NCBI RefSeq assembly: GCF_009451885.1
Contig: NZ_WIAO01000024.1
Span: forward strand, 1-64,000
From: Glycomyces albidus
Lineage (GTDB): Bacteria > Actinomycetota > Actinomycetes > Mycobacteriales > Micromonosporaceae
Direction of reading: 5' to 3'
DNA: 64,000 bases
Shown: positions 14,657 through 32,176 of the stretch, piece by piece
Layout of the letters: each line of letters begins with the position of its first letter
Position numbering within the stretch: the first letter of the stretch is position 1
Program-made: the position numbers and the translations under genes
Notes under the pieces: model-generated
Databases searched by the model: none
The model's input: only the letters and a program-made list of their open reading frames with translations
What the model was told of the DNA's origin: nothing

Positions 14657-15047
14657 GGTTCGGGCGCCGCGCTCGCTCGCGGACGGCTTCGGCCGGCTCA
14701 TCGTGCTCGTGTACGTCGTCTTCGCGGTCTCGGCGGGCGCCCGCGCGGGCTACCAGGTCGCGACCAAGTTCGCCGAGGCCCCGCTGAGTTTCACGCTCAG
14801 CGCCGTCGCGGCCGCGATCTACCTGGTGGCGGCGGTTGCGATCATCCGCGGCGCACCGCGCACCGCCCTCGCGGCGGTCGGCGTGGAGCTCGTCGGCGTG
14901 CTCGCCGTCGGCGCGCTGAGCGTCGCGAACCCGGACTGGTTCCCCGAGCCGTCGGTCTGGTCCCACTTCGGGTCCGGCTACGGGTACGTCCCGCTGGTCC
15001 TCCCGGTCGCGGGCGTGGTCTATCTGCTGCGCCGCCGGGCCGCCTAG
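14646..15047 (+). CDS. Four-helix membrane protein, 133 aa
   Basis: A 133-residue membrane protein with hydrophobic segments at about 16-32, 50-68, 74-92 and 110-126, resembling small actinobacterial integral membrane proteins of unknown function. Its ATG at 14646 lies inside the end of the preceding gene (11-base overlap), so it belongs to the same two-gene unit. It converges on the minus-strand gene ending at 15112. No function can be assigned. Confidence 0.65.
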   Translation: MSAEVRAPRSLADGFGRLIVLVYVVFAVSAGARAGYQVATKFAEAPLSFTLSAVAAAIYLVAAVAIIRGAPRTALAAVGVELVGVLAVGALSVANPDWFPEPSVWSHFGSGYGYVPLVLPVAGVVYLLRRRAA

Positions 15048-15111: not shown

Positions 15112-15723
15112 TCAGCGGCGGGCGGCCTCGACCGCTTCGGCGGCGGTCTCGAGGAACCGCAGCAGGCCGCCGTCCTCGGCCGGCTTGAGGTGCCCGCGGT
15201 GCCATGCGACGACCCAGTTCGACCGGACCATCCAGGACTGCGCGAGCGGTTCGGGGAGGACGTCGAGGAGGGCGCTCGCCGCGGCGGGGTCGGCCGCGGC
15301 CGCCGTCCGGGCCGCCCCGGCAGGGACCGGCACCGGCAGGCAGCGCGCGTCGGGCTGGAACCACTGCTTCGTGAGCCGCTCCGTGCCGGGCTCGGCGACC
15401 AGGAGGTCCGGCGCGGGCCGGGCGGTCGCGACCGCCGTGAACCAGTGCGCCACGTGCTTCCTGCGGTCCCAGACGCCGGGGTTGGCGAACGCGGCCACCC
15501 GTCGTCCGGCGCGGACGCCGACGGCCACGCGGGCGGGGTTCAGGTTCAGGCGCAGTCCCAGCGCCTCCAGTTCCGCGAGCGCGCCGGCGGCCTCCGGGTC
15601 TGCCGGCCCCGTGGACCGCAGCCCGAACGCCGCGGCGAACCGCTGTTCCCGGCGCCGCCGTGCTCCGCCGGTCGCCGAGCCGAGGACGGTCTCGAGGAAG
15701 AAGTGCGCGATCAGCTCGGACAT
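15112..15723 (-). CDS. Uncharacterised protein at the end of the FtsK/WXG operon, 203 aa
   Basis: A 203-residue soluble-looking protein with an N-terminal hydrophobic patch (SELIAHFFLETVLGSAT), a basic stretch GGARRRREQR and an alpha/beta remainder with WDRRKHVAHWFTAV and WMVRSNWVVAWHRGHL. It begins six bases after the stop of the WXG-EspC fusion gene and is therefore probably co-expressed with it. A chaperone-like role for the secreted partner would fit the position, as in other T7SS loci, but no sequence feature proves this. No family is recognised. Confidence 0.6.
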   Translation of the reverse strand: MSELIAHFFLETVLGSATGGARRRREQRFAAAFGLRSTGPADPEAAGALAELEALGLRLNLNPARVAVGVRAGRRVAAFANPGVWDRRKHVAHWFTAVATARPAPDLLVAEPGTERLTKQWFQPDARCLPVPVPAGAARTAAAADPAAASALLDVLPEPLAQSWMVRSNWVVAWHRGHLKPAEDGGLLRFLETAAEAVEAARR

Positions 15724-15729
15724 GGCGGC

Positions 15730-16977
15730 TCAGACCTGGTTGTACAGGGCTTCGAACGCGGCCGCCGCGATCTCGTCGGCGCTGCAGTAGCCGTCCTTGG
15801 TGTCGCGCAGGCGCTGCGCGTGGCCGGTGCAGGCGCCGGAGATCTGCCCGGTGGTGCTGATCGCCTCCTGGCAGGAGCCGTTGTAGGAGTTCGCGAAGAA
15901 GACGCCGGTGAGTCCCCAGGTCATCTCCTCCGAGGCGGCCGCGGTCGCCACCGAGTTGATCGCGTCGCCGTTGCCGGAGAGCCGGTCGAGTTCGGCGGCG
16001 AGCGCGTCGAGTTCGTCGAGTTGGACGGTGAGGCCCTCGGCGCTGGCGGCGGAGGCCGGAGCGGACGGCGCGTCCCCGGCCGTGAGCTGCTGGTAGCCGG
16101 CCGAGGCCGTGCCGAGCCCGGCGGTGATGCCGCCGGTGACGAGCCCGCGCATGAGGACCGCCTTCCACAGCGGCTTGCCCGCGGGCAGGAAGAACTTCTC
16201 GAGCAGCGGGGCGATCTTCGCGAAGATCTTCCCGGCCGCCGCGAACTTGCTGAGCGCCCGCTGGATCGCCGTCATCGCCTTGACCATGCCGCTGAGGATG
16301 AACTCGGCGATGGCCGCGCCGAACGTGAACGAGCTGGCGGCGAGGGCGACGAGCCCGCGCATGATCAGCCACGACACCAGTTCGGACAGGATCGACTTGA
16401 TGACGTCGTAGATGGTCTGGGCGACCACTTCGGCCCACGCCAGGAGCTGCTTGATGCCGCCGGCCTCGTGCCCCATCGCGCCGATCGCGGCCGACAGCCC
16501 GTAGAGCTGGTTGTAGGCGGCGTCGGCCGCCGAGCCCGACCAGTTCGGGATGCAGGTCCCGACGGCGGTGCCGACCTCCTCGCCGAGCGCGCCGAGCGCC
16601 TCCTGGACCTGGGCCCAGACCTCCTGCTGCTGCGCCATCTGCCCGGGGTCGCCAGAGACCATCTCGAGCAGGTCGTTGAGCGGGGTGACCAGTTCGAGGA
16701 CGATGGTGAGGCCCGCGTTCGCGAGCGCGAACACGGGGTCCTTGATGGCCATGAGGCCGCCCGCCGCGAGCATGCCGAGGTCGGCGGTGATGCCGCCGGC
16801 GGCGTCGGCGAGGGAGCTGTCGCCGTTGACGGCGTCGTTGATCTCCTGGGCGATCCCGTAGACGGGCTTGGCCAGGGGGATGTCGTTCGCGATGCGTTCG
16901 CCCGCGCCGGGGCTCTCGACGGGGGCGTACTGGGTGATGTCGGACCCGTACCGGTCCGCGTTGCTCGGCTCTGCCAT
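15730..16977 (-). CDS. WXG membrane-active protein fused to an EspC-like C-terminal domain, 415 aa
   Basis: A 415-residue protein. The N-terminal part carries LVTPLNDLLEMVSG (about 95-108) and IPNWSGSAADAAYNQL (WXG near residue 146), followed by long hydrophobic helices (about 190-300). An Ala/Ser linker leads to a C-terminal domain (about 310-415) with LDELDALAAELDRLSG and MTWGLTGVFFANSYNG, homologous to the free EspC-like protein at 6225-6551. It thus joins in one chain what the 6551-5074 operon encodes as two. The start ATG follows GAGGCG. The gene lies 61 bases behind the coiled-coil membrane protein and FtsK-type ATPase on the same strand, a hallmark pairing for type VII secretion. No toxin domain is seen. 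Confidence 0.78.
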   Translation of the reverse strand: MAEPSNADRYGSDITQYAPVESPGAGERIANDIPLAKPVYGIAQEINDAVNGDSSLADAAGGITADLGMLAAGGLMAIKDPVFALANAGLTIVLELVTPLNDLLEMVSGDPGQMAQQQEVWAQVQEALGALGEEVGTAVGTCIPNWSGSAADAAYNQLYGLSAAIGAMGHEAGGIKQLLAWAEVVAQTIYDVIKSILSELVSWLIMRGLVALAASSFTFGAAIAEFILSGMVKAMTAIQRALSKFAAAGKIFAKIAPLLEKFFLPAGKPLWKAVLMRGLVTGGITAGLGTASAGYQQLTAGDAPSAPASAASAEGLTVQLDELDALAAELDRLSGNGDAINSVATAAASEEMTWGLTGVFFANSYNGSCQEAISTTGQISGACTGHAQRLRDTKDGYCSADEIAAAAFEALYNQV

Positions 16978-17038
16978 GGATTCGCCTCAAGGGGTGCGGT
17001 AGTGCTTCGGTCACCCGACTATAAGGGGCGGGTGCCGC

Positions 17039-17665
17039 TCAACTGAAGAACCCGAAGCACGCCACGAGCAGCGTCGACCCGCAGAGGACGAGGCCGAGCC
17101 GGAAGTTCCGCTCCAGCTTCGCGTGCTCGTCGCCGATGCGCGGCCGCGCGGCGACGCCGATCGTCAACCAGCCCAGGCAGAACGCCGCGAGCGGGGCGGC
17201 GATGAGGATCGCGGCCAGCAGGACCGCGCCGGTGAGGTCGTCGGCCCGGACGGTGCGCAGGACGACGAGCTGCACGATCAGGCACGCGAGCGCGAACGCC
17301 CCGTAGACGAGCCCGTTGCGCTCGTCGGCGCGCCACCGCGGCAGCCACGGCGCCCGGTGCGCGAGGAACCGGGCTTCTTCGAGTTCGGTCGCGGCCGTGT
17401 GGAGGTCGGATTCGGCGGCGGCGAGTTCGGCGTTCGGGTCGCCGAGGGGCGCGGGCGGGGCGGTGCGCGGCGGGGGCGCGGTGCGGGCGGCGCGGGCGAG
17501 TTCGTCGACGGCGGCGCGATGGGCGGCGGCCTCGTCGGCGAGCCGCCGGGTGCGCTGGCCGAGGGTCTCGGCGGCGGTGGCGGTGCGGGCGGCGGCTTCG
17601 TCGGCGGTGCGGCGGGCCTCGTCGAGGCGGCGCAGCTGGGCGAGGTAGTCGTCGAAGGCGCTCAC
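17039..17665 (-). CDS. Coiled-coil protein with two transmembrane helices, 208 aa
   Basis: A 208-residue protein. Residues 1-70 form an Ala/Glu/Arg-rich coiled coil; a Pro-rich hinge (RTAPPPRTAPPAP) follows, then a short charged helix, two transmembrane segments (about 132-148 and 153-172) and a third hydrophobic stretch at the C-terminus (about 192-206). The GTG start (17663-17665) overlaps the upstream FtsK-type gene by four bases, so the two are translationally coupled. I infer that it anchors the soluble ATPase to the membrane, similar to the division of labour between EccCa and EccCb. No family is recognised. Confidence 0.65.
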   Translation of the reverse strand: MSAFDDYLAQLRRLDEARRTADEAAARTATAAETLGQRTRRLADEAAAHRAAVDELARAARTAPPPRTAPPAPLGDPNAELAAAESDLHTAATELEEARFLAHRAPWLPRWRADERNGLVYGAFALACLIVQLVVLRTVRADDLTGAVLLAAILIAAPLAAFCLGWLTIGVAARPRIGDEHAKLERNFRLGLVLCGSTLLVACFGFFS

Positions 17666-20085
17666 TGGCGGGTCCTCTCGATCGCGGTGCCGTCGCCGCT
17701 GCGCTGCGGGCCGGGCGCGTGGGCTTCGGGGCGGGTGAACGGGACGACGAGCCGTCCGCCCGCGGTGTCGGCGTGCCGGTCGACCAGGAGCGCGCGGCCC
17801 GGCCGGGGGTTCCAGTGCTGGAACTGGGGTCCGAAGTGGCCCATGAGTTCGCTGCCGGGGAGGTTGAGGACGAGTGCGCAGGCGACGTCTTCGCGTCCGG
17901 CGCTGCCGCCGATGTCGTCGGTGAAGCGGCGGAGGCTGCGCCACCAGCCGAGGACGTGGACGCCGCGGGCGGGCCCGGTGCGCAGGAGGTCGCGGAGGGC
18001 CTTCTGGCCCTTGGCGTCGAGGGCGGCGGCGTCGAGGCCCCACGCGGCGAGGACGGTGTCGTCGGGGACCTCCGCGAGTGCGGCGCCGAACCCGTCGGGG
18101 GTGACCTGGGCGGCGGTGTGCCGCAGGTCGGCGTTGCCGGTGAAGTCGGCGCCCCAGAGGCGGGTGCCGTTGCCGGCCAGGGCTTCGACGGCCGCTTCGA
18201 GGGCTTCGCCGCCGGCCGGGTCGGAGCCGAGGACGGCGAGGTTGCGGCCGGGCCGGCGGTCGAGGTCGACGCCGGCGGCCGCGAGGTGGAGCGAGACCTC
18301 GCGGCCGAGGAGCGCCCGGCCCGGCCGCCGCTCCCCGGGCAGGGTCTCGGCGAGGTGGACGGGCCGGTAGCCGTAGAAGACGCGGGGCGCGCCGACGCCG
18401 CTGTGGGCCCGCCCGAGCTGCTCGCGCAGCCGCAGCATGACCTCGGCGTCGGTGTCGGGGAAGCGGGCGATCCGGTCGGCGCCGGCGGTGCCGCCCTCGG
18501 GGTTGACGACGACCTGCCCGAGCGAGATCCGCGCGGCCGCATCGTTGTTCGGTTCCAGGACGGTGCGGGCGCCGGGGAGGGCGATGCGCATCGGGAACTG
18601 CCCGAAGATCGAGTCCTTCTTGGCCCACAGCGCCTCGATGCCGGAGATCGTCTGCGACGCGAGCACGAGGTGGACGCCGTACGAGCGGCCCTTGCGGGCC
18701 AGGTTCTCCAGGAGCGCGACCGCTTCCGAGGCGACCCGGTCGTTCCCGGCGAGGAGCACCTGGAACTCGTCGGCGACGCAGACGATCCGCGGGTACGCCT
18801 CGTGCTGCCGCAGCCCCGAGAACGACGCGCTGCCGTAGCGCTTCATGACGGTGGAGCGGCGCGTCATCTCCTCGTTGAGCGTCTTGAGGACCGCGAGCCC
18901 GTACTCGCGGTCGGACTCGACGCCGACGGCGCGCGCGTGCGGGATGAAGCTCGGGTCGCGCTCGGTCGGGATGAACTCGGTGAACGACACGCCCTCTTTG
19001 AAGTCGAGGAGGAACAGCGCCAGATCCGAAGGGGCGTACCGGGACGCGAGCCCGTAGAGCACGTCGAGGAGGAACACGGTCTTGCCGCCGCCGGTGCGTC
19101 CGCCGACGAGCCAGTGCGGGGTCGCGTCGTCGAACCGCAGCCGCACCTCCCCGGCCGCGTCGCGTCCGATGAGGACTTCGAGGCCGCGGGCCGGGTCGCC
19201 CGATTCGGGGGCGGCGGGGATGAGGTCGCTGAACGAGAGGGTCGCGGCGGCCTTGGCGCGCTCGGCGAGCCGGACCGCCTCGCCGGCCACGAAGGACGGA
19301 TCGGGCGCGTCGGGCCAGGCGACGGGCGCGGCCAGGCGGTCGCCGCGGCCGAACGGCGCCGCGGGCGGGTTCGCGATCTCGACGTGCTCGCCGACCGCGT
19401 GCATGACGGCGGCCCGCGGCAGCTCCGGCAGGCCGCAGCCGAGGACCGTGACGCCGTGCGCGAGACCGGATCTCGCGAGGGCGTCGATCCGCTCGACGAG
19501 GGTCCGCGGGGCGTCGCCGAGCGATGCGACGACGAGGAGCATCCGGTCGGTGCGCCGACCCGCGATGTGCTCGGCCACTTGGGATTCGGCGAGGGCGACC
19601 GCGTCGGCGGCGGCGCGCGCGTCCGTCGCGACCGCCTCGATCACGCCCGCGTCGGCGAGCGGCCGCAGCGGCGCGAACGAGGCGCCGAGCGTCGCCGTGT
19701 CGATCCCGACGACGCGCAGCCCGCCGGGTTCGCGGGTCGCGACCGCGTGCAGGACCGCGGTCCGCACCAGCGCCGCGACGCCGTCGACGCGCGCGTCGAC
19801 CGAGGTCGCGAGGTGCCCGCGGGCGCCGAAGGGCACCAGCAGCGGCACCGACCGGCCCTCGTGCAGGACGACGCGGCCCGCTTGGAGCAGTTCGGGATCG
19901 GTGCGCAGCTGCTGTGCGGAAGCGGCGGCCGCGTCGGCGATCTGGCGTTCGGCGGCCAGGAGCGCGGGGTCCACAGGGGTCTGGAAGGCGGCGTCGCCGA
20001 GGCGCTGGGCCGCGAGCCCGGCCCGGGCGGCGGCCGCGTCGCAGGCCGCGGCCGCGTTCGCCAGTGCAGTCTGGAAACCGGGCAC
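17662..20085 (-). CDS. FtsK/SpoIIIE-domain ATPase, 807 aa
   Basis: An 807-residue protein without transmembrane helices. The N-terminal 290 residues are helical then alpha/beta; the FtsK/SpoIIIE ATPase core has Walker A GGRTGGGKT at 328-336, LLDFKEGVSF near 359-368, and Walker B IVCVADEF at 434-441, followed by ASQTI. A C-terminal alpha/beta region (about 560-780) looks like a second, degenerate nucleotide-binding-type domain with no clear Walker motif. GTG start with GGAGG five bases upstream. T7SS ATPases (EccC/EssC) and DNA translocases share this fold; operon linkage to a WXG protein favours secretion, while linkage to the divergent AAA/BRCT genes leaves DNA translocation possible. Confidence 0.82.
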   Translation of the reverse strand: MPGFQTALANAAAACDAAAARAGLAAQRLGDAAFQTPVDPALLAAERQIADAAAASAQQLRTDPELLQAGRVVLHEGRSVPLLVPFGARGHLATSVDARVDGVAALVRTAVLHAVATREPGGLRVVGIDTATLGASFAPLRPLADAGVIEAVATDARAAADAVALAESQVAEHIAGRRTDRMLLVVASLGDAPRTLVERIDALARSGLAHGVTVLGCGLPELPRAAVMHAVGEHVEIANPPAAPFGRGDRLAAPVAWPDAPDPSFVAGEAVRLAERAKAAATLSFSDLIPAAPESGDPARGLEVLIGRDAAGEVRLRFDDATPHWLVGGRTGGGKTVFLLDVLYGLASRYAPSDLALFLLDFKEGVSFTEFIPTERDPSFIPHARAVGVESDREYGLAVLKTLNEEMTRRSTVMKRYGSASFSGLRQHEAYPRIVCVADEFQVLLAGNDRVASEAVALLENLARKGRSYGVHLVLASQTISGIEALWAKKDSIFGQFPMRIALPGARTVLEPNNDAAARISLGQVVVNPEGGTAGADRIARFPDTDAEVMLRLREQLGRAHSGVGAPRVFYGYRPVHLAETLPGERRPGRALLGREVSLHLAAAGVDLDRRPGRNLAVLGSDPAGGEALEAAVEALAGNGTRLWGADFTGNADLRHTAAQVTPDGFGAALAEVPDDTVLAAWGLDAAALDAKGQKALRDLLRTGPARGVHVLGWWRSLRRFTDDIGGSAGREDVACALVLNLPGSELMGHFGPQFQHWNPRPGRALLVDRHADTAGGRLVVPFTRPEAHAPGPQRSGDGTAIERTRQ

Positions 20086-20446
20086 CGGGCCTCCCCTTCA
20101 AGCGGGATCGGGACCGCACCGGGCGCGCCCGGACGGCGACTGTACAACCGGTCACACCTTATCGCGGACCGGCTCGGCGCGGCCGCTCGCGCGGCGCGGC
20201 CGGCGGCCCCCTGCGTCTGAGTGCGGCGGCGCCGACGCCCGCTTCGCGCAGCCTTCCCCCGATGGGGCGCGTGCACTACCCTAGAGGCAAGGCCCTAGAA
20301 GCAAGCCCGAACTCGCTGACCCGAGTGCCCTGACCCGACATCCCGCGTGCGAGGACCGCCCAGCGCGCGACACACAGAACCGAGACGCGACCGCGCGCCG
20401 CCCCGGCGAGCGGACCCTCGGATTCGCCAAGAAGGACCCGTGCCCC
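20086..20446. other. Divergent intergenic region between FtsK/WXG and flotillin operons
   Basis: These 361 bases separate two divergent start codons and must hold promoters for both operons. On the plus strand TACCCT at 20277-20282 could be a -10 element, which would leave an untranslated leader of about 155 bases before 20447; no clear -35 is seen. No ORF with coding character, RNA gene or strong hairpin was found. Confidence 0.4.
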
Positions 20447-21103
20447 ATGAGTGAGTTCCTGGATATCGCCCTATCCTTCCCTCCGGTCGTCTTCTCCTTC
20501 GGCCTCATCGTCGTGGTCCTGTACTGGCTCTCGGTCATCGTCGGCGCCCTCGACGTGGACGTCGTCGACGTCGGGGCCGACCCCGAGATCGAGGCCGGCG
20601 GGTTCTGGGGCGCGTTCGGGTTCGGCGCCGTCCCGGTCACCGTCGTCCTGTCCCTGTGGATCACCCTGGGCTGGATCGTCACCGTCCTCGGCGCCACCTG
20701 GGTGCGCAGCGCCGACGTGTTCATCCCGGCCGCAGCCTCCGGCGCGGCCGTGCTCGTCGCCGGCCTCGGCGTCGGCATGCTCGGCGCGAAGCTCCTCACC
20801 CGGCCGCTGTCGCGGCTCTTCGACGACGCGCCCGCCACCAAGCACGCCGACCTCGTCGGCAAGGTCGGCGTCGTCCGCACCGGCACCGTCACCCTCGACT
20901 CCGGGCAGGCCGAGATCGTCGACGAGGAGGGCGCGGTGATCCTCATCAACGTCCGCCGCTCCCCGCACGAGCCCGAAGGACTCGACGACAGCCTCTTCTC
21001 GCGCCATTCGAAAGTGGTCGTATTCGACTACGACGAGCTCGACCGCGTATTCCTCGTCGTCCCCGTCGCACTGCCTCCGGACATCGCCGTCCTGGACGCA
21101 TAG
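20447..21103 (+). CDS. YqiJ/NfeD-like OB-fold membrane protein (flotillin partner), 218 aa
   Basis: A 218-residue protein with three hydrophobic segments (about 12-34, 55-82 and 88-110), then a C-terminal beta-rich domain (about 125-205) with DLVGKVGVVRTGTV, GAVILINVRR and KVVVFDYDE. This is the arrangement of the YqiJ/YuaF (NfeD-like) group, whose OB-fold domain sits on one face of the membrane and whose gene is paired with a flotillin. Here a flotillin gene follows 173 bases downstream on the same strand, which supports the call. In Bacillus and E. coli the pair organises membrane microdomains; the same role is inferred here. First gene of a four-gene operon candidate. Confidence 0.75.
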   Translation: MSEFLDIALSFPPVVFSFGLIVVVLYWLSVIVGALDVDVVDVGADPEIEAGGFWGAFGFGAVPVTVVLSLWITLGWIVTVLGATWVRSADVFIPAAASGAAVLVAGLGVGMLGAKLLTRPLSRLFDDAPATKHADLVGKVGVVRTGTVTLDSGQAEIVDEEGAVILINVRRSPHEPEGLDDSLFSRHSKVVVFDYDELDRVFLVVPVALPPDIAVLDA

Positions 21104-21176
21104 CCCCCGAATTCGTGCCGGGGCCGCATTCGCGGACCCCGGAAGCGGCACGCCTTGGATATCGTGGCGTCACGCC

Positions 21177-21224
21177 CGCGACCATGCGCCCGCAACCGCG
21201 CACTCGCGACCGTGCGCCCGCAAC
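21177..21224 (+). repeat. Short tandem-like repeat upstream of the flotillin gene
   Basis: A 20-base unit (21177-21196 and 21205-21224) occurs twice with one mismatch and a period of 28. It lies in the 173-base gap before the flotillin gene. It may be a protein-binding site or simply local duplication. Confidence 0.45.
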
Positions 21225-21276
21225 ACCACGCCCATGACTCCCGAACCCCCATTGAAGTCTCGTTAGGAACCACCGA

Positions 21277-23346
21277 ATGGACGCCTCCAACTCGGCAACG
21301 CTGATCACGCTCGTGGTCGCCGCGCTCATCTTCCTGGGCCTGCTGCTCATGATCATCCGGCTCTACCGGAAGGTCGCCCCGGGCCAGGCGCTCGTCGTCA
21401 CCAAGCTCCGCACCCGGAAGGTCTCGTTCACGTCCGCGCTGGTCCTGCCGATCATCCACCGCGCCGAGTACATGGACATCTCGGTCAAGACGATCGAGAT
21501 CAACCGCGCCGGCAAGGACGGGCTGATCTGCCAGGACAACATCCGCGCCGACATCTCCATCACGTTCTTCGTGCGGGTGAACGCGACCGCCGACGACGTC
21601 ATCAACGTCGCCGGCGCCATCGGCACCAAGCGCGCCTCCGACCAGGACACGCTGCAGGAGCTGTTCAACGCCAAGTTCTCCGAGGCCGTCAAGACCGTCG
21701 GCAAGCAGCTCGACTTCACCGACCTCTACACGAACCGCGACGAGTTCCGCGACCGCATCCTCAACGTCATCGGCACCGACCTCAACGGCTACTCGCTCGA
21801 GGACGCCGCGATCGACTACCTCGAGCAGACCCCGCTCGAGCACCTCGACCCGCAGAACATCCTCGACGCCCAGGGCATTCGCAAGATCACCGAGCTGACG
21901 GCGATCGAAGCGGTGACCACGAACGAGCACCGCCGCCACGAGGAGAAGGAGATCAAGCGCCAGAACGTCGAGGCCCGCGAGGCCGTGCTCGAACTCGAGC
22001 GCCGCCAGACCGAGGCCGAGATCCGCCAGCAGCGCGAGATCGACACCCTCCGCGCCCGCGAGGCCGCCGAGGTCGCGAAGGTCCAAGCCGAGGAGCGCCT
22101 CAAGTCCGAGACCGCCCGGATCAGGACCGAGGAGGCCACGGGCATCCAGCACGAGAACCGCCTCCGCGAGATCGCCGTCGCCGAGAAGAACCGTGAGCGC
22201 GTCATCGCCGTCGAGACCGAGCGCATCGAGAAGGACCGCATCCTCGAGGTCGTCGCCCGCGAACGCGAGGAAGAACTCGCCCGCATCGCCGCCAACAAGG
22301 AGCTCGAGGCGCAGAAGCGCGACATCGCCGACGTCATCCGCGAGCGCATCGCCGTCGAGAAGACCGTCGCCGAGCAGGAAGAGGGCATCAAGCGCCTGCG
22401 CGCCACCGAGGAGGCCGAGCGCGAGCGCCAGCGCGTCATCATCCTCGCCGAGGCCGAAGCCCAGGAGAGCCTGGTCAAGGACATCAAGCGCGCCGAAGCC
22501 GCCGAGGTCGCCTCCAAGCACCTCGCGCGCCAGCGCCTCACCGAGGCCGAGGCCGCCCAGCAGGCCGCCGAGCTGGAGGCCCGCGCGAAGATCCGCCAGG
22601 CCGAAGGGGACCAGGCCATCGCGGCCGCCCCGGGCCTCGCCGAGGTCCAGGTCCGCGAGGCCGAGGCCGACGCGATCGAGAAGGGCGGGCTCGCCGAGGC
22701 GAAGGCCGCCGAGGCGAAGGGCCTGGCCGAAGCCGAGGCCCAGGCCGCCATCGGCAAGGCCGAGGCGACCGCGACCGCCGCGAAGGGCACCGCCGAGGCG
22801 AACGCCCTGCGCGAGAAGCTCGTCGCCGAGTCCGCCGGCCTCACCGAGAAGGCCGCCGCCATGGACGCGCTGTCCGAGGCGTCCCGCGGCCACGAGGAGT
22901 ACCGCCTGCGCCTGGAGATGGAGAAGGAGCTGCGTGCCGCCGAGATCGAGGCCCGCCGGTCCATCGCCGAACAGCAGGCGAACGTCATCGCCACCGGCCT
23001 GTCGAAGGCCGACATCTCCCTGGTCGGCGGCGACGCCCAGTTCTTCGACCGGGTCGTCGGCGCGATCGGCTACGGCAAGGCCGTCGACGGGTTCGTCGCC
23101 CACTCCGAGGTCGCGCAGACCGCGGTCGCGGCCTGGGGCAACGGGTCCACGTCGTTCGCCGAGGACCTCAAGGGCGTCCTCGCCGGCATCGGCACCGAGG
23201 ACGTCAAGAACCTCACCGTCTCCGCCGCGCTCCTGAAGCTCATCCAGGGCGGCGGCGACGAGGGCTCCTTGAACGGCCTGCTCGCCAAGGCCCGCGAGCT
23301 CGGCGTCGCCGAGAAGCCGGCGCTCGAGATCGCCACCGCCAGATAG
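21277..23346 (+). CDS. Flotillin-family SPFH protein (YqiK-like), 689 aa
   Basis: A 689-residue flotillin. One N-terminal membrane helix (about 8-28), the SPFH/PHB domain (about 30-210, with RADISITFFVRVNATADDV and ALVVTKLRTRK), then a very long charged coiled coil (about 220-560) made of EAEA and RAEA repeats, ending in a small globular C-terminus (about 560-689). Length and architecture fit YqiK-type flotillins. It would form oligomeric lattices on the inner membrane face. The preceding gene is its expected OB-fold partner. Two tandem hairpins separate it from the giant ATPase gene. An N-terminal proximal palmitoylation-like Cys is not needed in bacteria and is absent. Confidence 0.9.
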   Translation: MDASNSATLITLVVAALIFLGLLLMIIRLYRKVAPGQALVVTKLRTRKVSFTSALVLPIIHRAEYMDISVKTIEINRAGKDGLICQDNIRADISITFFVRVNATADDVINVAGAIGTKRASDQDTLQELFNAKFSEAVKTVGKQLDFTDLYTNRDEFRDRILNVIGTDLNGYSLEDAAIDYLEQTPLEHLDPQNILDAQGIRKITELTAIEAVTTNEHRRHEEKEIKRQNVEAREAVLELERRQTEAEIRQQREIDTLRAREAAEVAKVQAEERLKSETARIRTEEATGIQHENRLREIAVAEKNRERVIAVETERIEKDRILEVVAREREEELARIAANKELEAQKRDIADVIRERIAVEKTVAEQEEGIKRLRATEEAERERQRVIILAEAEAQESLVKDIKRAEAAEVASKHLARQRLTEAEAAQQAAELEARAKIRQAEGDQAIAAAPGLAEVQVREAEADAIEKGGLAEAKAAEAKGLAEAEAQAAIGKAEATATAAKGTAEANALREKLVAESAGLTEKAAAMDALSEASRGHEEYRLRLEMEKELRAAEIEARRSIAEQQANVIATGLSKADISLVGGDAQFFDRVVGAIGYGKAVDGFVAHSEVAQTAVAAWGNGSTSFAEDLKGVLAGIGTEDVKNLTVSAALLKLIQGGGDEGSLNGLLAKARELGVAEKPALEIATAR

Positions 23347-23355
23347 CGGACCGCC

Positions 23356-23386
23356 CGCAGGCGGAGCCGGACCGGCTCCGCCTGCG
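23356..23386 (+). terminator. Strong hairpin directly after the flotillin gene
   Basis: A near-perfect inverted repeat (23356-23370 with 23372-23386, 15 bases per arm, one central base) begins ten bases after the stop at 23346. It is not followed by a T-run. It could end part of the transcripts or protect the 3' end of the upstream message. Confidence 0.55.
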
Positions 23387-23391
23387 GACAC

Positions 23392-23411
23392 GGCCCTGTG
23401 CGAACAGGGCC
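23392..23411 (+). other. Second hairpin with GCGA tetraloop
   Basis: An 8-bp stem (23392-23399 with 23404-23411) closed by a GNRA-type GCGA loop lies six bases after the first hairpin. A 14-base direct repeat (23381-23394 and 23411-23424) brackets it. Together the two hairpins look like an intra-operon attenuator or processing site between flotillin and ATPase genes. Confidence 0.45.
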
Positions 23412-23562
23412 CTGCGGACACGGCACCGCGGAACCGGACCCCTCAGGGGCCCTTCGGATTCCGCAACCGGTCCGCCCGGCGGCCCGCGTCCGGACCGCCA
23501 CCGCCCCGACCTCGCTTCCGGTCGCGGGCCGCCCGCCGCTTCGACCGAACCCAGGGGAGCCC

Positions 23563-26500
23563 ATGGCCGAGAACGCCGCCACCTCCGCGACCGCCGCCGC
23601 TGCGCCCGCCGCCGCCGCTGACGCCCCGTCCCCCGACGCCTCCCTGGACGGCGGTACCTACGAGGTCCTCTCGGGGCGCCTCGCCGGGTACGCCGCCGAG
23701 CTCGCCGAGCGGGCCGAGGCCCTCAACGCCGCCCGCACCGAGGCGTTCGGGTCCACCGAGCTCACCCTCCTCGGCACCACCCGCATCCGGACCGCGAACA
23801 ACTGCGTCCCCCGCGACATCGCCCGCGTCGGCAACCGCCTCCTCTTCGGCTACAACGTCCACATGGGACTCAAGTCGCAGACCGGGGTCGCCGACGTCTT
23901 CGCCCTCCACGATTTCGCACGCGAGAACGGGAACTTCGCGTTCACCGAGGTCACCGAGCCCGGCCACCTCCTCGACGAGCCCCGCTTCACCACCGACTTC
24001 ACCGAGATCTACCGGTACTACCGCTCCGCCGAACTCCTCCAGGTCCGCGAGGTCGACACCCGCCTCCTCGCCGTCTTCAAGATCGGCGAGCAGCTCACCG
24101 ACCAGCGCGTCCTGCGCTGGCAGCTCCAGAGCGACGGCACCGCCGCGTACATCGACGCGCGCGGCGACGCCGACGCGGTCTGGCCCGAGCCGTACGACTT
24201 CGAGTGGACCCAGACCACGCGCGAGCACCACGTCACCGGCCGCCACCCGCACGTGTCTATCGAGGACGAGATCTTCGTCGAATGCCTGAACGGCGACCTC
24301 ACCGTCAAGATCGAGGACAACACCGAGACCGGCGAGGGCGTCTACTCCGAGCCCGTCGCCGAGCCCCTCCAGTCCCTCGCCGACGCCGAGATCGCCTACG
24401 CCCGCGTCGGGCCCCTCATCCTGTTGCGGATCCTCCCGTACAAGGAGACCATCGCCCGCCACCTGATCTACAACACCCGCACCGCCACCGTGGTCCGCGC
24501 CGACGCGATCGGCGCCGCCTGCCGGCGCCTCCCCGAGGACCACGGCATCATCTTCCCCGGCGGGTACTACCTCAACGAGGGCCGGCTCAAGACCTTCGAC
24601 CACGACAGCGCCGGGCTGCGGTTCAAGAAGGTCGTCCGCTCGCCCAACGGCGAGGACGTCCTCTACGTCTTCTACGAAGAGGCCGAGGGCCGCTCGCTCC
24701 TGCTGCCGTACAACGTGATCCGCAAGGAGGTCGCGGCGCCGATGAGCGTCCACGGCCACGCGGTCTTCGACGACGGCACCCTCGTCGCGTTCCGCGCCAC
24801 CGGCGACGAGGCCACCCGCGTCCACCCGATGCAGGTGTGGGCCACCCCGTTCTGCTCCGAGGCGTACGCCGCCGCGGCCGAGACCGGCGACACGCCCGTC
24901 CACCGCATCGGCAACGCCGAAGCCGTCCGCGCCGTCTCGGACGCGCTCTCGGTGGCCCGCATGGTCCGCGAGATGCAGCCGGCCCAGGCGGTCTTCGAGG
25001 CGCTCATCGCCGCCGCCGTCCGCTGCCTCGACGACTACCCGTGGCTCGGCGACGAGGGCCTCCACGGCCTCGACGAGACCCTCCGGCACGTCCGCGACAC
25101 CGCCGAGGCCGTCCTCGACGAGTACGCCACCGTCGCCGAACTCACCGCCGAGGCCGAGAAGGCCCTCGAAGAGGCCCAGACCGGCACCGTCAAGCTCCTG
25201 CGCCGCGCCCGCGGCGAGACGCCCAAGACCGCCGAGGAATGGGTCGGGCTCCTCACCGAGCTGCGCGGCGCCTCCGGGCACCTCGTGACCCTCCGCGAGA
25301 CCCGCTACATCGACCTCGCCGGGATCGACGCGCTCGCCGCCGAGGTCGCCGAGTCCCTCGCGACGACCGGCCGCCGCGCCGTCGCGTTCCTCGAACGGGA
25401 CGACGCGTTCACCGCCTACCACGAGCAGATCGCCGAACTCGAACGCAAAGCCGAGGCCATCGAGACCGTCGCCGAGGCGAACCCGGTCCTCGAGGACCTC
25501 GACGCCCGCCAGCAGGGTCTCGAGACGCTCACCGAGGTCGTCGCCAACCTCGACATCGGCGACGCCGTCGTGCGCACCGCGATCCTCGGCCGCGTCTCCG
25601 AAGTGCTCGCCGCCGTCAACCGCGCCCGCGCCGCGCTCGCCGCGCGCCGCCGCGAACTCGCCGTCGGCGAGGGCCGCGCCGAGTTCGCCGCCGAGTTCGC
25701 GCTCCTCGGCCAGTCCGTGACCGCCGCGATCAGCGCCGCCGGCACGCCCGCCGCATGCGACGACCAGCTCGGCCGGCTCCTGCTCACCATCGAGAACCTC
25801 GAGACCCGCTTCGCCGACTTCGACGAGTTCCTAGCGCAGCTCGCCGACAAGCGCACCGACGTCTACGAGGCGTTCTCCTCCCGCAAGCAGCACCTCCTCG
25901 ACGAGGCCGCCCGCCGCGCCGAGCAGCTCGCCCAGTCCGCCGACCGCATCCTCGATGCCGTCGCCCGCCGCACCGTGACACTGTCCTCGCTGGACGAGGT
26001 CAACACGTACTTCGCGACCGACCCGATGGTCGAGCGCCTCCGCAAGGTCGTCGGCGAACTCCGCGGCCTCGACGACACCGTCCGCGCCGAGGAGATCGAG
26101 GGCCGCATCGCCGCCGCCCGCGCCGAGGCCGGCCGCGCCCTCACCGACCGCATCGACCTGTTCGACGGCGACGCCGTCAAGTTCGGCGAGCACCGCATCC
26201 CCGTCAACACCCAGCCGCTCGACCTCACCCTCGTGCCCACCGGCGACGGGCTCGCGTTCTCGCTCACCGGCACCGACTACCGGCACGTCGTCGACGACCC
26301 CGGCTTCGCGGACACGAGACCGTACTGGAGCCAGTTCCTGCCCTCGGAGAACGCCGAGGTCTACCGGTCCGAGCACCTCGCCTCCGCGCTCCTCGAGGAA
26401 CGGGGCGCGGCCGCGCTCGCACTCGAGGCCGACCTGCCGAGGCTCGTCGCCGCCGCGGCCGCCGAACGCTACGACGAGGGCTACGAGCGCGGCGTCCACG

Positions 26501-28557
26501 ACGCCGACGCCGCCGCGATCCTCGCCGAGGTCCTCCGCCTCCACGGCCCCGCCGGGACGCTCCGCTACCCCGGCGCCGAACGCGCCCTCGCCCAGCTGTT
26601 CTGGAGCGAGGCCGCCGTCGACGGCAAGGCGCAGCAGGAGACCTGGACCGCCCAGGCCCGGTCCCTCGCCCGAGTCCGGGAGACCTTCGGCAGGACCGAC
26701 GTCATGGCCGGCCTCATCGACGACATCCGCGTGCGGCTCGCCCGGTTCACCGGCGACGCGCTCCTGCACGCCCACTTCCAGTTCCCGCTCCGGGCCGACG
26801 AGCGCCTCGCCGTCGAGTACCTCGTCGAAGAGCTCGCCGCGACCGGCGCGTTCGCGGCCTCCGCGCGCGCCCGCGCGCTCCTGGCGGCGTTCGCGAACCA
26901 CATCGGACCGGCCGCGAAGTCCGGCCTCGACGAGGACCTCCGCGGCCTCGAACCCGACGACCCCGCCGACCGGCCGCGCGCCCTGTCCCGCAGATGGGGC
27001 CTGGCGTGGACGTGGCTCGACGCGTTCCTCGCCCAGGACGAGAGCGACCGGTACGACCGCACCGACCTCCCCGAGGCGATCGCGCTCCTCATCGGCGGCG
27101 CCGACACGTACGACGCCGACGCCGAGCTCACCGCGCAGGCCACCGGCCTGCTCGGGACCCACCCGCGCGTCGAGAACCGCGTCCTCGCATTCCGCCTCGA
27201 CGAGTTCCTCGCCCGCACCGGCCGCTTCCGCCGCGAAGTCCTCCCCGGCTACCGCGCCTACCAGCGCCGCCGCGCCGAGATCATCGAGGAGCACCGCCGC
27301 ACCCTCCGCATCGAGGAGTTCAAGCCCAAGACGATGGCCGGGTTCGTCCGCAACCAGCTGATCGACGACGTGTACCTGCCGCTCATCGGCGCGAACCTCG
27401 CCAAGCAGATCGGCGCCGGCGGCGGCGAGGGCCGCCGCACCGACCAGTCCGGGATGCTCATGCTCATCTCGCCGCCCGGCTACGGCAAGACGACCCTCAT
27501 GGAGTACGTCGCCGACCGGCTCGGGATGCTCCTGGTCAAGGTCAACGGGCCCGCGCTCGGGCACGACACCGTCTCGGTCGACCCGGCCGACGCGCCGAAC
27601 GCGACCGCCCGCGCCGAGGTCCAGAAGATCAACTTCGCGCTCGAATGCGGCTCGAACGTCCTGCTCTACCTCGACGACATCCAGCACACCAACCCCGAGC
27701 TGCTCCAGAAGTTCATCTCGCTGTGCGACGCCCAGCGGAAGATGGAGGGCGTCTGGAACGGCCGCACCCGCACCTACGACCTGCGCGGGAAGCGGTTCGC
27801 GGTGTGCATGGCCGGCAACCCGTACACTGAGGCCGGCCAGAAGTTCCGCATCCCCGACATGCTCGCCAACCGCGCCGACGTGTGGAACCTCGGCGACGTC
27901 CTGTCCGGGCGCGACCGGGTCTTCGCCCAGTCGTACATCGAGAACGCGCTCACCTCGAACCAGGTGACCGCGCCGCTCGCCGCCCGCGGCCGCGCCGACG
28001 TGCAGCTCCTCATCCGGCTCGCCGCCGGCGACCCGACCGCCGCCCCGGAGGGCCTCGCCCACCCGTACTCGGCGGGCGAGCTCGACCAGGTCCTGTCGGT
28101 CCTGCGCAAGCTCCTGCGGATCCAGGAGACCGTGCTGCGCAACAACCTCGCGTACATCGCCTCGGCCGCCCAGGACGACGCCTCGCGCACCGAGCCGCCG
28201 TTCCTGCTCCAGGGCTCGTACCGGAACATGAACCGGCTCGCCGAGCGGGTCGTCCCGGTCATGAACGACGAGGAGCTCGAAGCGGTCATCGACGACCACT
28301 ATGCGGGCGAGGCGCAGACGCTCGCGTCCGGCGCGGAGGCCAACCTGCTCAAACTCGCCGAGCTCCGGGGGCGCCTGACGCCCGAGCGCGAGACCCGCTG
28401 GGAGGCGGTCAAGGACGCGTTCCGCCGGGAGCAGACCCTCGGCGGCGCGAGCGACGATCCAATGTCGAGGGCCGTCGGCGCGATCACCCTGCTGTCCGAC
28501 CGCGTCGCCGGAATCGAGACCGCCCTGAAGGAAAGAAGCAGCGTCCGCGGGGAATAA
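23563..28557 (+). CDS. Giant AAA+ ATPase (DNA-repair-ATPase/DUF3686-like), 1664 aa
   Basis: A 1664-residue protein starting at ATG 23563 with AGGGGAG just upstream. The order is: a short Ala-rich lead; a coiled segment; a beta-rich domain of about 350 residues (70-450) with propeller-like repeats; long helical/coiled-coil regions (about 480-900); a further alpha/beta and helical part; and a C-terminal MoxR-like AAA+ module with Walker A PPGYGKTT (1304-1311), Walker B LLYLDDIQ with D1371/D1372, and a sensor-1-like GNPYT (N1419). This fits the family usually labelled DNA repair ATPase (DUF3686), as I remember it; the repair role is not proven. Operon position after YqiJ-like and flotillin genes implies a membrane-linked remodelling machine. 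Confidence 0.8.
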   Translation: MAENAATSATAAAAPAAAADAPSPDASLDGGTYEVLSGRLAGYAAELAERAEALNAARTEAFGSTELTLLGTTRIRTANNCVPRDIARVGNRLLFGYNVHMGLKSQTGVADVFALHDFARENGNFAFTEVTEPGHLLDEPRFTTDFTEIYRYYRSAELLQVREVDTRLLAVFKIGEQLTDQRVLRWQLQSDGTAAYIDARGDADAVWPEPYDFEWTQTTREHHVTGRHPHVSIEDEIFVECLNGDLTVKIEDNTETGEGVYSEPVAEPLQSLADAEIAYARVGPLILLRILPYKETIARHLIYNTRTATVVRADAIGAACRRLPEDHGIIFPGGYYLNEGRLKTFDHDSAGLRFKKVVRSPNGEDVLYVFYEEAEGRSLLLPYNVIRKEVAAPMSVHGHAVFDDGTLVAFRATGDEATRVHPMQVWATPFCSEAYAAAAETGDTPVHRIGNAEAVRAVSDALSVARMVREMQPAQAVFEALIAAAVRCLDDYPWLGDEGLHGLDETLRHVRDTAEAVLDEYATVAELTAEAEKALEEAQTGTVKLLRRARGETPKTAEEWVGLLTELRGASGHLVTLRETRYIDLAGIDALAAEVAESLATTGRRAVAFLERDDAFTAYHEQIAELERKAEAIETVAEANPVLEDLDARQQGLETLTEVVANLDIGDAVVRTAILGRVSEVLAAVNRARAALAARRRELAVGEGRAEFAAEFALLGQSVTAAISAAGTPAACDDQLGRLLLTIENLETRFADFDEFLAQLADKRTDVYEAFSSRKQHLLDEAARRAEQLAQSADRILDAVARRTVTLSSLDEVNTYFATDPMVERLRKVVGELRGLDDTVRAEEIEGRIAAARAEAGRALTDRIDLFDGDAVKFGEHRIPVNTQPLDLTLVPTGDGLAFSLTGTDYRHVVDDPGFADTRPYWSQFLPSENAEVYRSEHLASALLEERGAAALALEADLPRLVAAAAAERYDEGYERGVHDADAAAILAEVLRLHGPAGTLRYPGAERALAQLFWSEAAVDGKAQQETWTAQARSLARVRETFGRTDVMAGLIDDIRVRLARFTGDALLHAHFQFPLRADERLAVEYLVEELAATGAFAASARARALLAAFANHIGPAAKSGLDEDLRGLEPDDPADRPRALSRRWGLAWTWLDAFLAQDESDRYDRTDLPEAIALLIGGADTYDADAELTAQATGLLGTHPRVENRVLAFRLDEFLARTGRFRREVLPGYRAYQRRRAEIIEEHRRTLRIEEFKPKTMAGFVRNQLIDDVYLPLIGANLAKQIGAGGGEGRRTDQSGMLMLISPPGYGKTTLMEYVADRLGMLLVKVNGPALGHDTVSVDPADAPNATARAEVQKINFALECGSNVLLYLDDIQHTNPELLQKFISLCDAQRKMEGVWNGRTRTYDLRGKRFAVCMAGNPYTEAGQKFRIPDMLANRADVWNLGDVLSGRDRVFAQSYIENALTSNQVTAPLAARGRADVQLLIRLAAGDPTAAPEGLAHPYSAGELDQVLSVLRKLLRIQETVLRNNLAYIASAAQDDASRTEPPFLLQGSYRNMNRLAERVVPVMNDEELEAVIDDHYAGEAQTLASGAEANLLKLAELRGRLTPERETRWEAVKDAFRREQTLGGASDDPMSRAVGAITLLSDRVAGIETALKERSSVRGE

Positions 28558-28671
28558 AGGCTCGGCGCTGGGCCGCACCGCACCGGACACCCGGTACGCT
28601 TTCGAACAAGAGCCTGGCGCCTGGCTCGCCGTGCCCCTGAAGCCGCTGATTATCAATAAAGGGAGGTCCCC

Positions 28672-29400
28672 GTGCCGACAAAGACGGGAGAAAAGGTCCG
28701 GATCATTGTCTTGGGCACCGGCCCCGACGCCGACACCGCCCGCGCGATCGCCGAGTCCGACGCCGACGTCGCACTCGCCAAACAGTTCACCAAGACCGTG
28801 ACCCACCTGGTCGCCGACGACACCGTCAAGCCCACCGAAGCGCGCCTGAAGAAGGCCGAGGAGGCCGGCGTCCCCGTCCTCACCGTCGCCGAGTTCCGCG
28901 CGCTGCTGGTCGCCGGGGCCGAGGACGAGGAGGAGACCGAAGCGGTCGAGACCCCCGCGGCCGAGACCGAGGAGGCACCCGCCGCCGAGGTCGAGGAGGC
29001 GCCCGCCGCCGGGGGGACCGCCGACGTCGCCGAAGCCGAGACCGCCGCCGCGACCGCGGACGTCGAGCCCGAGCCGGTCGCCGAAGCCCCTGAGCCCGAG
29101 CCCGTCACCGCCCCCGCCGCCGAGCCCGTCGAGGAGCTCGAGCCGGTCGACGAGTCCGAGAAGCCCTCGGAGGCGGCGCCGACCGAGACCGCGGCCGCGA
29201 CCACGTCGTCCACCGAGCCCGAGCCGGTCGCCGAGGCGATCGACGAGCCGGAGGAGGCCAAGGCCGACCCGGAGCAGGCCGTCCCCGCCCAGACCAAGGC
29301 GCCCGCGATCGAGACCACCGACGCCGGATCCGAGAAGGCCAAGCCCGGCCTCCTCGCCAAGATCAAGTCGATCTTCGGCCTCACCGGCGCCCGCAAGTAG
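28672..29400 (+). CDS. BRCT-domain protein with long acidic tail, 242 aa
   Basis: A 242-residue protein starting at GTG 28672, seven bases after GGGAGGT. Residues 1-80 look like a single BRCT domain: KVRIIVLGTGPDAD, then VTHLVADDTVKPTEARLKKA (about 44-63) and VPVLTVAEFRALL. The next 140 residues are an acidic, Glu/Ala/Pro-rich disordered region; the last 17 residues are basic and amphipathic (LLAKIKSIFGLTGARK), possibly a membrane- or nucleic-acid-binding tip. It follows the giant ATPase by 114 bases and ends at a strong terminator, so it is probably the last gene of that operon. BRCT domains bind phosphopeptides or DNA ends. A stand-alone copy next to flotillin genes is unusual. Confidence 0.7.
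   Translation: MPTKTGEKVRIIVLGTGPDADTARAIAESDADVALAKQFTKTVTHLVADDTVKPTEARLKKAEEAGVPVLTVAEFRALLVAGAEDEEETEAVETPAAETEEAPAAEVEEAPAAGGTADVAEAETAAATADVEPEPVAEAPEPEPVTAPAAEPVEELEPVDESEKPSEAAPTETAAATTSSTEPEPVAEAIDEPEEAKADPEQAVPAQTKAPAIETTDAGSEKAKPGLLAKIKSIFGLTGARK

Positions 29401-29572: not shown

Positions 29573-32176
<2,604 letters not shown>

What the first reader, a model, noticed from the sequence alone, without database searches (positions are those of the whole stretch)
15112..29400. Divergent FtsK/WXG and flotillin/giant-ATPase/BRCT operons as one candidate machine
Two operons diverge from a shared 361-base region. One encodes an FtsK-type ATPase with intact Walker A and B, a coiled-coil membrane partner and a WXG-EspC fusion. 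The other encodes a YqiJ-like protein, a flotillin, a 1664-residue AAA+ ATPase and a BRCT protein. FtsK plus WXG is the minimal signature of type VII secretion; flotillin plus OB-fold partner organises membrane patches; the giant AAA+ family is annotated as DNA repair. Together they suggest a membrane-docked NTP-dependent system for secretion, DNA movement or defence that I do not know as a described whole.
Basis: partly seen in the sequence, partly recalled or inferred. Interest (0 to 1): 0.78.

Follow-up and report, generated by a model that had tools for sequence, protein, structure and literature searches.

The report
Two separate operons, back to back
Two gene groups that looked like one new machine appear to be two separate ones that sit together in one small group of soil bacteria: a known membrane-patch set, and a pared-down relative of a protein-export motor that may be new.

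Summary
The window is from Glycomyces. The two operons are not one conserved machine.

Right side: YqiJ-like, flotillin and propeller-AAA+ ATPase. This trio is already described (Ravi 2024). In my scan flotillin lies beside the ATPase in 78 of 80 loci, from Actinobacteria to Gammaproteobacteria; FtsK is nearby in 1 of 80, a Glycomyces. In 29 genomes of other genera holding both genes, none shows them adjacent. Within Glycomyces the divergent FtsK/YqiJ pairing is kept in all 21 loci read.

Left side: the constant unit is FtsK plus a coiled-coil/TM protein. The WXG/EspC gene is accessory (4 of 20 informative loci). The FtsK core resembles EccC's first ATPase domain, but it has no clear TM segment and one Walker A. 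Relatives of this pair often sit beside an 86-residue WXG-like hairpin, which is also the N-terminus of DddA-like and CdiA_C-type toxins (8 of 10 ORFs scanned).

I infer a lineage-restricted, T7SS-like export ATPase module beside an unrelated flotillin module. A flotillin link stays possible: S. aureus flotillin aids T7SS assembly.

The parts
17662..20085 (-). EccC-like FtsK/HerA ATPase, 807 aa, no TM segment by hydropathy, a single Walker A (GTG start)
   Evidence: PF01580 6e-22; TIGR03924 EccCa 1.1e-21 but 77 vs cut-off 509 bits; best PDB match 4nh0 9e-18; hhalign to the first NTPase domain of EccC, 99.1%; hydropathy and Walker scan
17039..17665 (-). coiled-coil plus three-TM partner (CCTM), start overlaps the FtsK stop by 4 bases
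   Evidence: 4-base overlap in 20 of 21 Glycomyces loci; a CCTM or c17 gene follows FtsK in 27 of 31 other loci
15730..16977 (-). WXG100-like/EspC fusion, 415 aa; accessory candidate substrate
   Evidence: PF10824 7e-5 just over cut-off, WXG100_2 below cut-off; directly after CCTM in 4 of 20 informative Glycomyces loci; 6 further relatives in the genome, none within 10 kb of an FtsK-CCTM hit
15112..15723 (-). 203-aa protein of unknown family that travels with the WXG/EspC gene
   Evidence: no match in Pfam, NCBIfam or PADLOC at the E-values used; follows WXG/EspC in 4 of 4 loci, and occurs downstream of CCTM without it in L082 and L171
20086..20446 (.). divergent intergenic region, 361 bases, with two conserved blocks and a variable spacer
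   Evidence: 21 Glycomyces loci; gap 176-554 bases in 20, 4700 in G009; blocks seen by eye only
20447..21103 (+). YqiJ/YuaF-like TM partner of flotillin
   Evidence: labelled before flotillin and AAA in 62 of 80 GTDB loci; three strong N-terminal hydrophobic segments and a weak C-terminal one; family named in PMC11237479; no Pfam match
21277..23346 (+). flotillin-type SPFH/Band-7 protein with a long region that reads as coiled coil
   Evidence: PF01145 2.6e-8; found with the AAA+ gene in 78 of 80 loci
23563..28557 (+). 1664-aa propeller / helical / AAA+ ATPase (DUF3686)
   Evidence: PF12458 6.9e-203, PF00004; predicted structures of residues 1-600 and 1230-1664 with PDB matches
28672..29400 (+). 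BRCT-like N-terminus plus acidic low-complexity protein
   Evidence: BRCT 0.0087, below cut-off; in 2 of 80 GTDB loci, both Glycomyces

Best explanation
Two independent modules lie back to back. Module 1 (FtsK plus CCTM): an EccC-like ATPase that has no membrane anchor of its own is held at the membrane by a separately encoded coiled-coil/three-TM protein. It most likely powers export of WXG-like helical-hairpin proteins, in the manner of type VII secretion. Relatives of the module probably serve polymorphic toxins that carry the hairpin at their N-terminus. Module 2 (YqiJ-like, flotillin, propeller-AAA+): an oligomeric flotillin scaffold and its NfeD-like partner organise a membrane patch, and a cytosolic AAA+ remodeller (propeller and helices for client binding, AAA+ motor) loads or dismantles membrane-associated protein complexes there. 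The two modules came together once, in the line leading to Glycomyces and genus G033. Shown: gene content, conservation, linkage and its limits, domain similarities. Inferred: export, membrane anchoring, client remodelling, a single joining event, and functional independence.
For: Module 2 stands alone: flotillin is found with the ATPase in 78 of 80 GTDB loci, the other two starting at contig ends, and gene calls give YqiJ/Flot/AAA in a row in 62 of 80. FtsK is nearby in 1 of 80. Outside Glycomyces 0 of 29 genomes with both show them adjacent. In G003 the flotillin and ATPase genes are gone from the locus, and DUF3686 from the genome, while FtsK-CCTM, YqiJ and BRCT stay; genus G033 has FtsK-CCTM but no DUF3686 match. 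Module 1: in 31 FtsK loci other than the window's Glycomyces orthologs, 27 have a CCTM or c17 gene after FtsK. EccC-likeness. Hairpin partner: 45 of 106 hairpin hits lie within 5 kb of an FtsK hit of this family, against about 0.66 expected by a rough estimate. Co-occurrence: 39 of 61 genomes have both, 20 neither, 2 one only. Hairpin fused to toxin domains: 8 of 10 ORFs scanned. Hairpin weakly WXG100-like.
Against: The pairing is kept in all 21 Glycomyces loci read, which coupling would also explain. No hairpin hit lies within 5 kb of any of the 21 Glycomyces orthologs of the window's FtsK, so the toxin link rests on relatives of the module. None of the 8 toxin-domain ORFs lies on a contig that carries a listed FtsK hit of this family, and they come from only 4 genomes, 5 of them from G008. 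The 12 rows of the hairpin model were themselves taken from FtsK loci, and the co-occurrence test is not corrected for shared ancestry. FtsK misses the EccC equivalog cut-off by far. CCTM and c17 could not be shown to be homologous. No protein interaction, export or localisation has been measured.
Confidence: 0.72

Rival explanations
1. One machine in Glycomyces: the flotillin/YqiJ patch and the giant AAA+ protein assemble or recycle the FtsK-CCTM exporter, so that the divergent operons form a co-regulated secretion platform.
For: Divergent pairing in 21 of 21 Glycomyces loci. FtsK beside YqiJ also in G033, whose FtsK groups with Glycomyces in the tree. S. aureus flotillin FloA binds EssB and its loss lowers T7SS secretion (PMC5718613; abstract and discussion read).
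Against: Outside this line the modules are not seen adjacent in any of 29 genomes with both. G003 and G033 keep FtsK-CCTM without DUF3686, and without flotillin at the locus. G009 has 4.7 kb between the operons, with a YbaB-domain gene and two small ORFs that look WXG-like by eye. The conserved promoter-side blocks look separate, by eye.
Confidence: 0.15
2. The window's FtsK and WXG/EspC genes are accessory parts of the genome's ordinary type VII system (ESX-type EccB/C/D on contig C45): WXG/EspC is exported there, and FtsK-CCTM is only a regulator or a substrate-feeding ATPase.
For: EccB, EccC and EccD over cut-off on contig C45. A paralogous FtsK-CCTM cassette lies a little under 30 kb from that EccC. 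The WXG/EspC family has 7 places in the genome, only one of them beside FtsK. Window clusters 5074-8310 and 39591-41005 hold EspC and WXG-like genes without FtsK.
Against: FtsK-CCTM is conserved as its own pair with an intact Walker A and, in relatives, with its own hairpin partner, which is more than a regulator needs.
Confidence: 0.25
3. A DNA-handling or anti-phage system: FtsK pumps DNA, and the giant ATPase and BRCT protein repair or sense it.
For: Pfam describes PF12458 as 'ATPase involved in DNA repair'. The AAA+ domain has RuvB as its best match by E-value, and a RuvB fragment has the highest TM-score on the target seen, 0.65. PADLOC gives mad8, SspH and HerA matches to the FtsK core, PDC-S48 8e-8 to the BRCT-like protein, and weak IetA and JetC matches.
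Against: The PADLOC matches to FtsK cover its core only. Type VII ATPases (4nh0, an EccC as I recall, 9e-18; YukB 1.6e-11; EccC5 8e-9) match the FtsK better than FtsK DNA translocases do (5e-8). No nuclease or other effector was named in the two operons by Pfam, NCBIfam or PADLOC. The BRCT match is below cut-off, and the locus is kept in place through a genus.
Confidence: 0.06

Closest known systems
Flotillin / YqiJ-YuaF / propeller-AAA+ operon (Ravi et al. 2024, PMC11237479; passages read)
   Same: [quoted passage not shown] The paper states that short operons of this kind are more widely distributed.
   Different: No PspA/CesT dyad in this operon (the one PspA match is on another contig); a BRCT-like gene is added in Glycomyces; an FtsK operon lies divergent to it.
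Type VII secretion (T7SSa/b and T7SSc-j of Garrett et al. 2024, PMC11217815; abstract and sections 7, 9, 16 read)
   Same: EccC-like FtsK ATPase core, WXG-like hairpin partner in relatives, toxins carrying the hairpin at the N-terminus.
   Different: The paper gives T7SSc-j a membrane-bound ATPase with four C-terminal NTPase domains. Here the ATPase has no clear TM segment and one Walker A, the membrane part is a separate coiled-coil/TM protein, and no EccB/D-like gene is in the operon.
NfeD-flotillin (FloA-NfeD) microdomains of S. aureus and B. subtilis (PMC11222466 abstract; PMC5718613 abstract and discussion; PMC2636767 passages)
   Same: Flotillin encoded with an NfeD/YuaF-type partner; a scaffold role in membrane protein assembly.
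   Different: Those operons, as far as read, do not include a giant AAA+ ATPase.
DddA/SCP1.201-type deaminase polymorphic toxins (PMC7901873 and PMC3482391 passages)
   Same: The same toxin domain (PF14428) is fused to the hairpin domain.
   Different: The DddA studied in PMC7901873 is delivered by a type VI system (abstract in listing); the hairpin domain found here reached no Pfam cut-off.

Membership tests
Type VII secretion system | EccC/EssC-family FtsK ATPase | tested here: inconclusive
   Core aligns to the first NTPase domain of EccC and type VII ATPases are among the best PDB matches, but TIGR03924 gives 77 bits against a cut-off of 509.
Type VII secretion system | ATPase membrane-bound, with several NTPase domains | tested here: not met
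   No TM segment by hydropathy and one Walker A in 807 aa; some relatives show one or two marginal hydrophobic segments. The ESX EccC of the same genome has a predicted TM segment and three Walker A motifs.
Type VII secretion system | WXG100/EsxA partner encoded at the locus | tested here: inconclusive
   WXG/EspC fusion near cut-off and present in 4 of 20 informative loci. Hairpin c15 at related loci scores below WXG100 cut-offs.
Type VII secretion system | Additional membrane components such as EccB and EccD | tested here: not met
   No EccB or EccD match among the left-operon proteins; they are on contig C45.
Type VII secretion system | ATP-dependent protein export | not testable with these tools
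   Needs an experiment.
Flotillin/YqiJ/propeller-AAA+ operon (Ravi 2024) | Flotillin with TM, band-7 and coiled coil | tested here: met
   Band_7 and one N-terminal TM segment; the coiled coil is read from the sequence, no predictor was run.
[quoted passage not shown]
   DUF3686, DUF7902 and AAA. Predicted models have mean pLDDT 87.3 (N part) and 85.7 (C part). The N part matches propeller proteins, though with TM-scores of 0.40 or less.
Flotillin/YqiJ/propeller-AAA+ operon (Ravi 2024) | 3-TM YqiJ/YuaF-like protein next to flotillin | tested here: met
   Position and three strong N-terminal hydrophobic segments plus a weak C-terminal one; no Pfam match.
PSP (PspA/CesT) operon | PspA-CesT/Tir dyad in the operon | tested here: not met
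   No PspA match in the operon; the only PspA match in the genome is on contig C14.
Known anti-phage defence system | Complete known system in PADLOC | tested here: not met
   Only partial or weak matches: FtsK core to mad8, SspH and HerA, BRCT-like protein to PDC-S48, AAA to IetA, CCTM to JetC.

The most novel reading that the evidence does not exclude
FtsK-CCTM, with the 86-residue hairpin protein in its relatives, is an undescribed, stripped-down type VII subtype of the window's family and a few relatives in its order. It would export polymorphic toxins of the DddA and CdiA_C types whose N-terminal hairpin is the export signal. In Glycomyces it has in addition been coupled to a flotillin/AAA+ assembly platform.
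Probability: 0.2. Interest if true: 0.78.

Novelty: new variant of a known kind. Interest (0 to 1): 0.45.

Why it matters
If the FtsK-CCTM module exports hairpin-tagged toxins, it would be a minimal type VII-like motor with the ATPase and its membrane part on two separate proteins, and it would give these actinobacterial DddA-type deaminases a delivery route that can be tested. The negative result matters too. The flotillin/giant-ATPase operon is a widespread, self-standing module and should be studied as such, not as part of this secretion locus.

Tried and rejected
One machine across Actinobacteria was rejected on linkage. DNA repair for the giant ATPase was not upheld, but not excluded: a profile of 11 sequences finds Rix7 and RuvB only at E 0.004-0.008. 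By fold the AAA+ part matches RuvB best by E-value; TM-scores on the target reach 0.60 for MoxR-type NorQ/CbbQ and 0.65 for a short RuvB fragment. Anti-phage defence: PADLOC gave partial matches only. FtsK+WXG as a fixed pair was rejected because the slot after CCTM varies. CCTM and the c17 family of more distant paralogs could not be shown to be homologous: hhalign aligns 23 columns, 93.7%. They share position, similar length and TM pattern. A draw of 149 genomes of the phylum found the FtsK family (E up to 1e-90) and the hairpin (E up to 1e-6) in 1 of 149, the window's own; at most 6 FtsK candidates a genome were scored there. With a looser cut the module also turns up in 4 genomes of the order outside the family (G046, G048, G050, G059). 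Papers: none held DUF3686, 'Glycomyces' with 'type VII secretion', or flotillin with 'DNA repair ATPase' and operon; one search found one paper, on Bacillus. My novelty claim is bounded by those searches of that library. The A/B/C labels of FtsK are bands of E-value, not clades: the tree (42 proteins; 12 Glycomyces loci and one partial EccC left out; quick method) splits band C into two clades. One search's gene caller missed genes in loci of lower GC and was redone with per-locus training; gene calls there are my own and approximate.
Full report
Observation. FtsK starts at 20085 on the minus strand and the YqiJ-like gene at 20447 on the plus strand, leaving 361 bases. FtsK has Walker A GRTGGGKT and the Walker B stretch IVCVADEF. 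Pfam gives FtsK_SpoIIIE 6e-22, Band_7 2.6e-8 and DUF3686 6.9e-203 with AAA. EspC is just over cut-off; WXG100_2 and BRCT are under theirs. The giant protein is 1664 aa from the ATG at 23563.

Where it is. The window is therefore from Glycomyces.

The right-hand operon is a known module. Ravi et al. 2024 (PMC11237479; [quoted passage not shown] In the 80 loci, flotillin is found by tblastn in 78; in the two misses the ATPase gene begins at a contig end. YqiJ is found in 60 by tblastn. By gene calls, YqiJ/Flot/AAA stand in a row in 62 of 80, and the most frequent further neighbour cluster is in 28. FtsK and CCTM occur in 1 of 80, and BRCT in 2 of 80, all Glycomyces; the second Glycomyces contig ends before FtsK could be seen. 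The predicted structure of residues 1-600 (mean pLDDT 87.3) is beta-rich followed by long helices and matches propeller proteins with TM-scores of 0.40 or less. Residues 1230-1664 (85.7) are an AAA+ domain, nearest to RuvB by E-value, with MoxR-type NorQ/CbbQ chains reaching 0.60 and a short RuvB fragment 0.65 by TM-score on the target. I read this as a chaperone-like remodeller; that is inference.

Linkage. Of 22 Glycomyces genomes (G000-G021), 21 have the FtsK ortholog and 20 have DUF3686. In 21 of 21 loci read, FtsK and YqiJ are divergent, with gaps of 176-554 bases in 20 and 4700 in G009. In G003 flotillin and ATPase are missing from the locus and DUF3686 from the genome, while YqiJ, BRCT and FtsK-CCTM remain (flotillin elsewhere was not searched for); G012 has neither the FtsK ortholog nor DUF3686. 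In a draw of 121 genomes of the family, 77 have FtsK at E up to 1e-125 and 44 have DUF3686. Of the 29 non-Glycomyces genomes with both, 17 have them on the same contig, at least 105 kb apart by linear distance, and 12 on different contigs. FtsK paralogs weaker than 1e-125 were not part of this count, and distances across the start of a circular contig were not taken: for G142 that distance would be roughly 35-135 kb, as its size is given only rounded. In genus G033, FtsK-CCTM is divergent to YqiJ; no DUF3686 match is in the genome and no flotillin in the 20 kb read. In G034 the FtsK ortholog and DUF3686 are 3.6 Mb apart along the contig (about 370 kb if circular), and the nearest FtsK paralog 801 kb. 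In the FtsK tree G033 is sister to Glycomyces and G034 next. One joining event in that line, with later losses, fits best; this is inference.

The left-hand operon. FtsK and CCTM are the constant pair: the 4-base overlap is seen in 20 of 21 Glycomyces loci. In the 31 other FtsK loci fetched (other genera and paralogs), 27 have a CCTM or c17 gene after FtsK (in one a further gene lies between), 2 a shorter gene of BLAST cluster c1, and 2 an unlabelled gene; the CCTM/c17 proteins mostly show three TM segments. The window genome has two paralogous cassettes, on C34 and C45. The slot after CCTM varies among 21 loci. L176 shows nothing because the stretch ends there. Of the other 20, the WXG/EspC plus 203-aa pair is in 4, a c32 gene in 4, c28/c33 in 2, the 203-aa gene alone in 1, other genes in 2, and the conserved flanking gene c5 directly in 7. 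WXG/EspC-like genes are common in the genome (7 places, 4 on this contig), and the window has two further EspC/WXG-like/YbaB clusters. So adjacency of WXG/EspC to FtsK is weak evidence of partnership.

What FtsK resembles. Best PDB match 4nh0 (named FtsK/SpoIIIE in the entry; an EccC as I recall) at 9e-18, then YukB 1.6e-11 and EccC5 8e-9; DNA translocase FtsK at 5e-8. NCBIfam EccCa 1.1e-21 but far under its cut-off. A profile of 23 family members aligns over 186 columns with the first NTPase domain of the genome's ESX EccC, 99.1%. It has no TM segment by hydropathy and one Walker A; CCTM has an N-terminal part that reads as coiled coil and three TM segments. Garrett et al. 2024 describe T7SSc-j as having membrane-bound ATPases with four NTPase domains (PMC11217815; abstract and three sections read). 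A canonical EccB/C/D set is present elsewhere in this genome.

The hairpin clue. Several FtsK-CCTM loci carry an 83-99 aa helical protein (alignment A2, 12 rows, all from such loci) with weak, sub-cut-off WXG100 matches along its length. In 61 genomes, 106 hits were found. Of these, 45 lie within 5 kb of an FtsK hit of this family, against about 0.66 expected by a rough estimate; all 39 strongest do, but these include the 12 model rows, and most of the rest are the orthologous cassette of other Glycomyces. None lies within 5 kb of the 21 Glycomyces orthologs of the window's FtsK. Module (best E up to 1e-25) and hairpin co-occur in 39 genomes, neither in 20, one alone in 2 (not corrected for ancestry). 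In the family draw, 99 of 121 genomes have the hairpin. I fetched 20 of the 106 hairpin places, chosen mainly for long open frames, and of the 20 ORFs scanned the 10 of at least 250 aa other than a near-copy; left out were that near-copy, one of 205 aa and eight of 80-129 aa. Six carry DddA-like deaminase and two CdiA_C domains above cut-off; two have none. The eight come from four genomes (G008 five; G009, G011 and G032 one each), and none is on a contig with a listed FtsK hit of this family. This supports the hairpin as an export-type N-terminus of polymorphic toxins, and makes the FtsK-CCTM module a candidate motor. The step from shared domain to shared machine is inference, and for the window's own copy it is one step further; the window genome has a single hairpin hit, beside its C45 paralog.

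Flotillin and secretion. In S. aureus, FloA binds EssB and its loss reduces T7SS secretion (PMC5718613; abstract and discussion read). This keeps a one-machine reading alive for Glycomyces. It is against that reading that the modules are apart, or one is missing, in the other genera examined.

Verdict. Two modules: one known, one a possible new variant of a type VII-like ATPase system.

Noticed in passing
window 5074-8310 and 39591-41005: Two clusters of type VII substrate-like genes: WXG100_2-like (over cut-off in the first, under in the second), EspC-like (PF10824 over cut-off in both) and YbaB-type genes. The WXG/EspC protein at 15730 looks like a fused form of such a pair.
   Followed up: partly
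L235-L245 and L252 (fetched): Hairpin-domain ORFs of other Glycomyces genomes and of one genome of the same family (G032) end in DddA-like deaminase (6 of 10 scanned) or CdiA_C (2 of 10) domains; G008 alone has 10 hairpin hits.
   Followed up: partly
window 20086-20446: In the 20 Glycomyces intergenic regions printed, two conserved blocks, one on each side, flank a spacer of variable length, as if each operon had its own promoter (by eye).
   Followed up: no
L081 and L179: In G009 a YbaB-domain gene and two small ORFs lie between FtsK and YqiJ (4.7 kb); in G020 a WXG/EspC relative and two small ORFs follow YqiJ, on the flotillin side. The locus looks like a repeated landing place for such genes (the small ORFs judged by eye).
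   Followed up: partly
window 29573-32176; L200, L201: ClpB (TIGR03346 over cut-off) follows the BRCT gene in the window; a ClpB relative also lies near, on the other strand from, a paralogous FtsK cassette in two other genera.
   Followed up: no
window 10449-15047: CopC-like, molybdopterin-synthesis-like and small membrane genes (named from recall); clusters c5, c7 and c11 also lie beside FtsK-CCTM in G033 and G034, so FtsK-CCTM keeps its chromosomal place where the flotillin operon is absent or elsewhere.
   Followed up: partly
G000 contig C45, L065 and L066: A paralogous hairpin-c19-FtsK-c17 cassette a little under 30 kb from the canonical EccB/EccC/EccD locus.
   Followed up: partly
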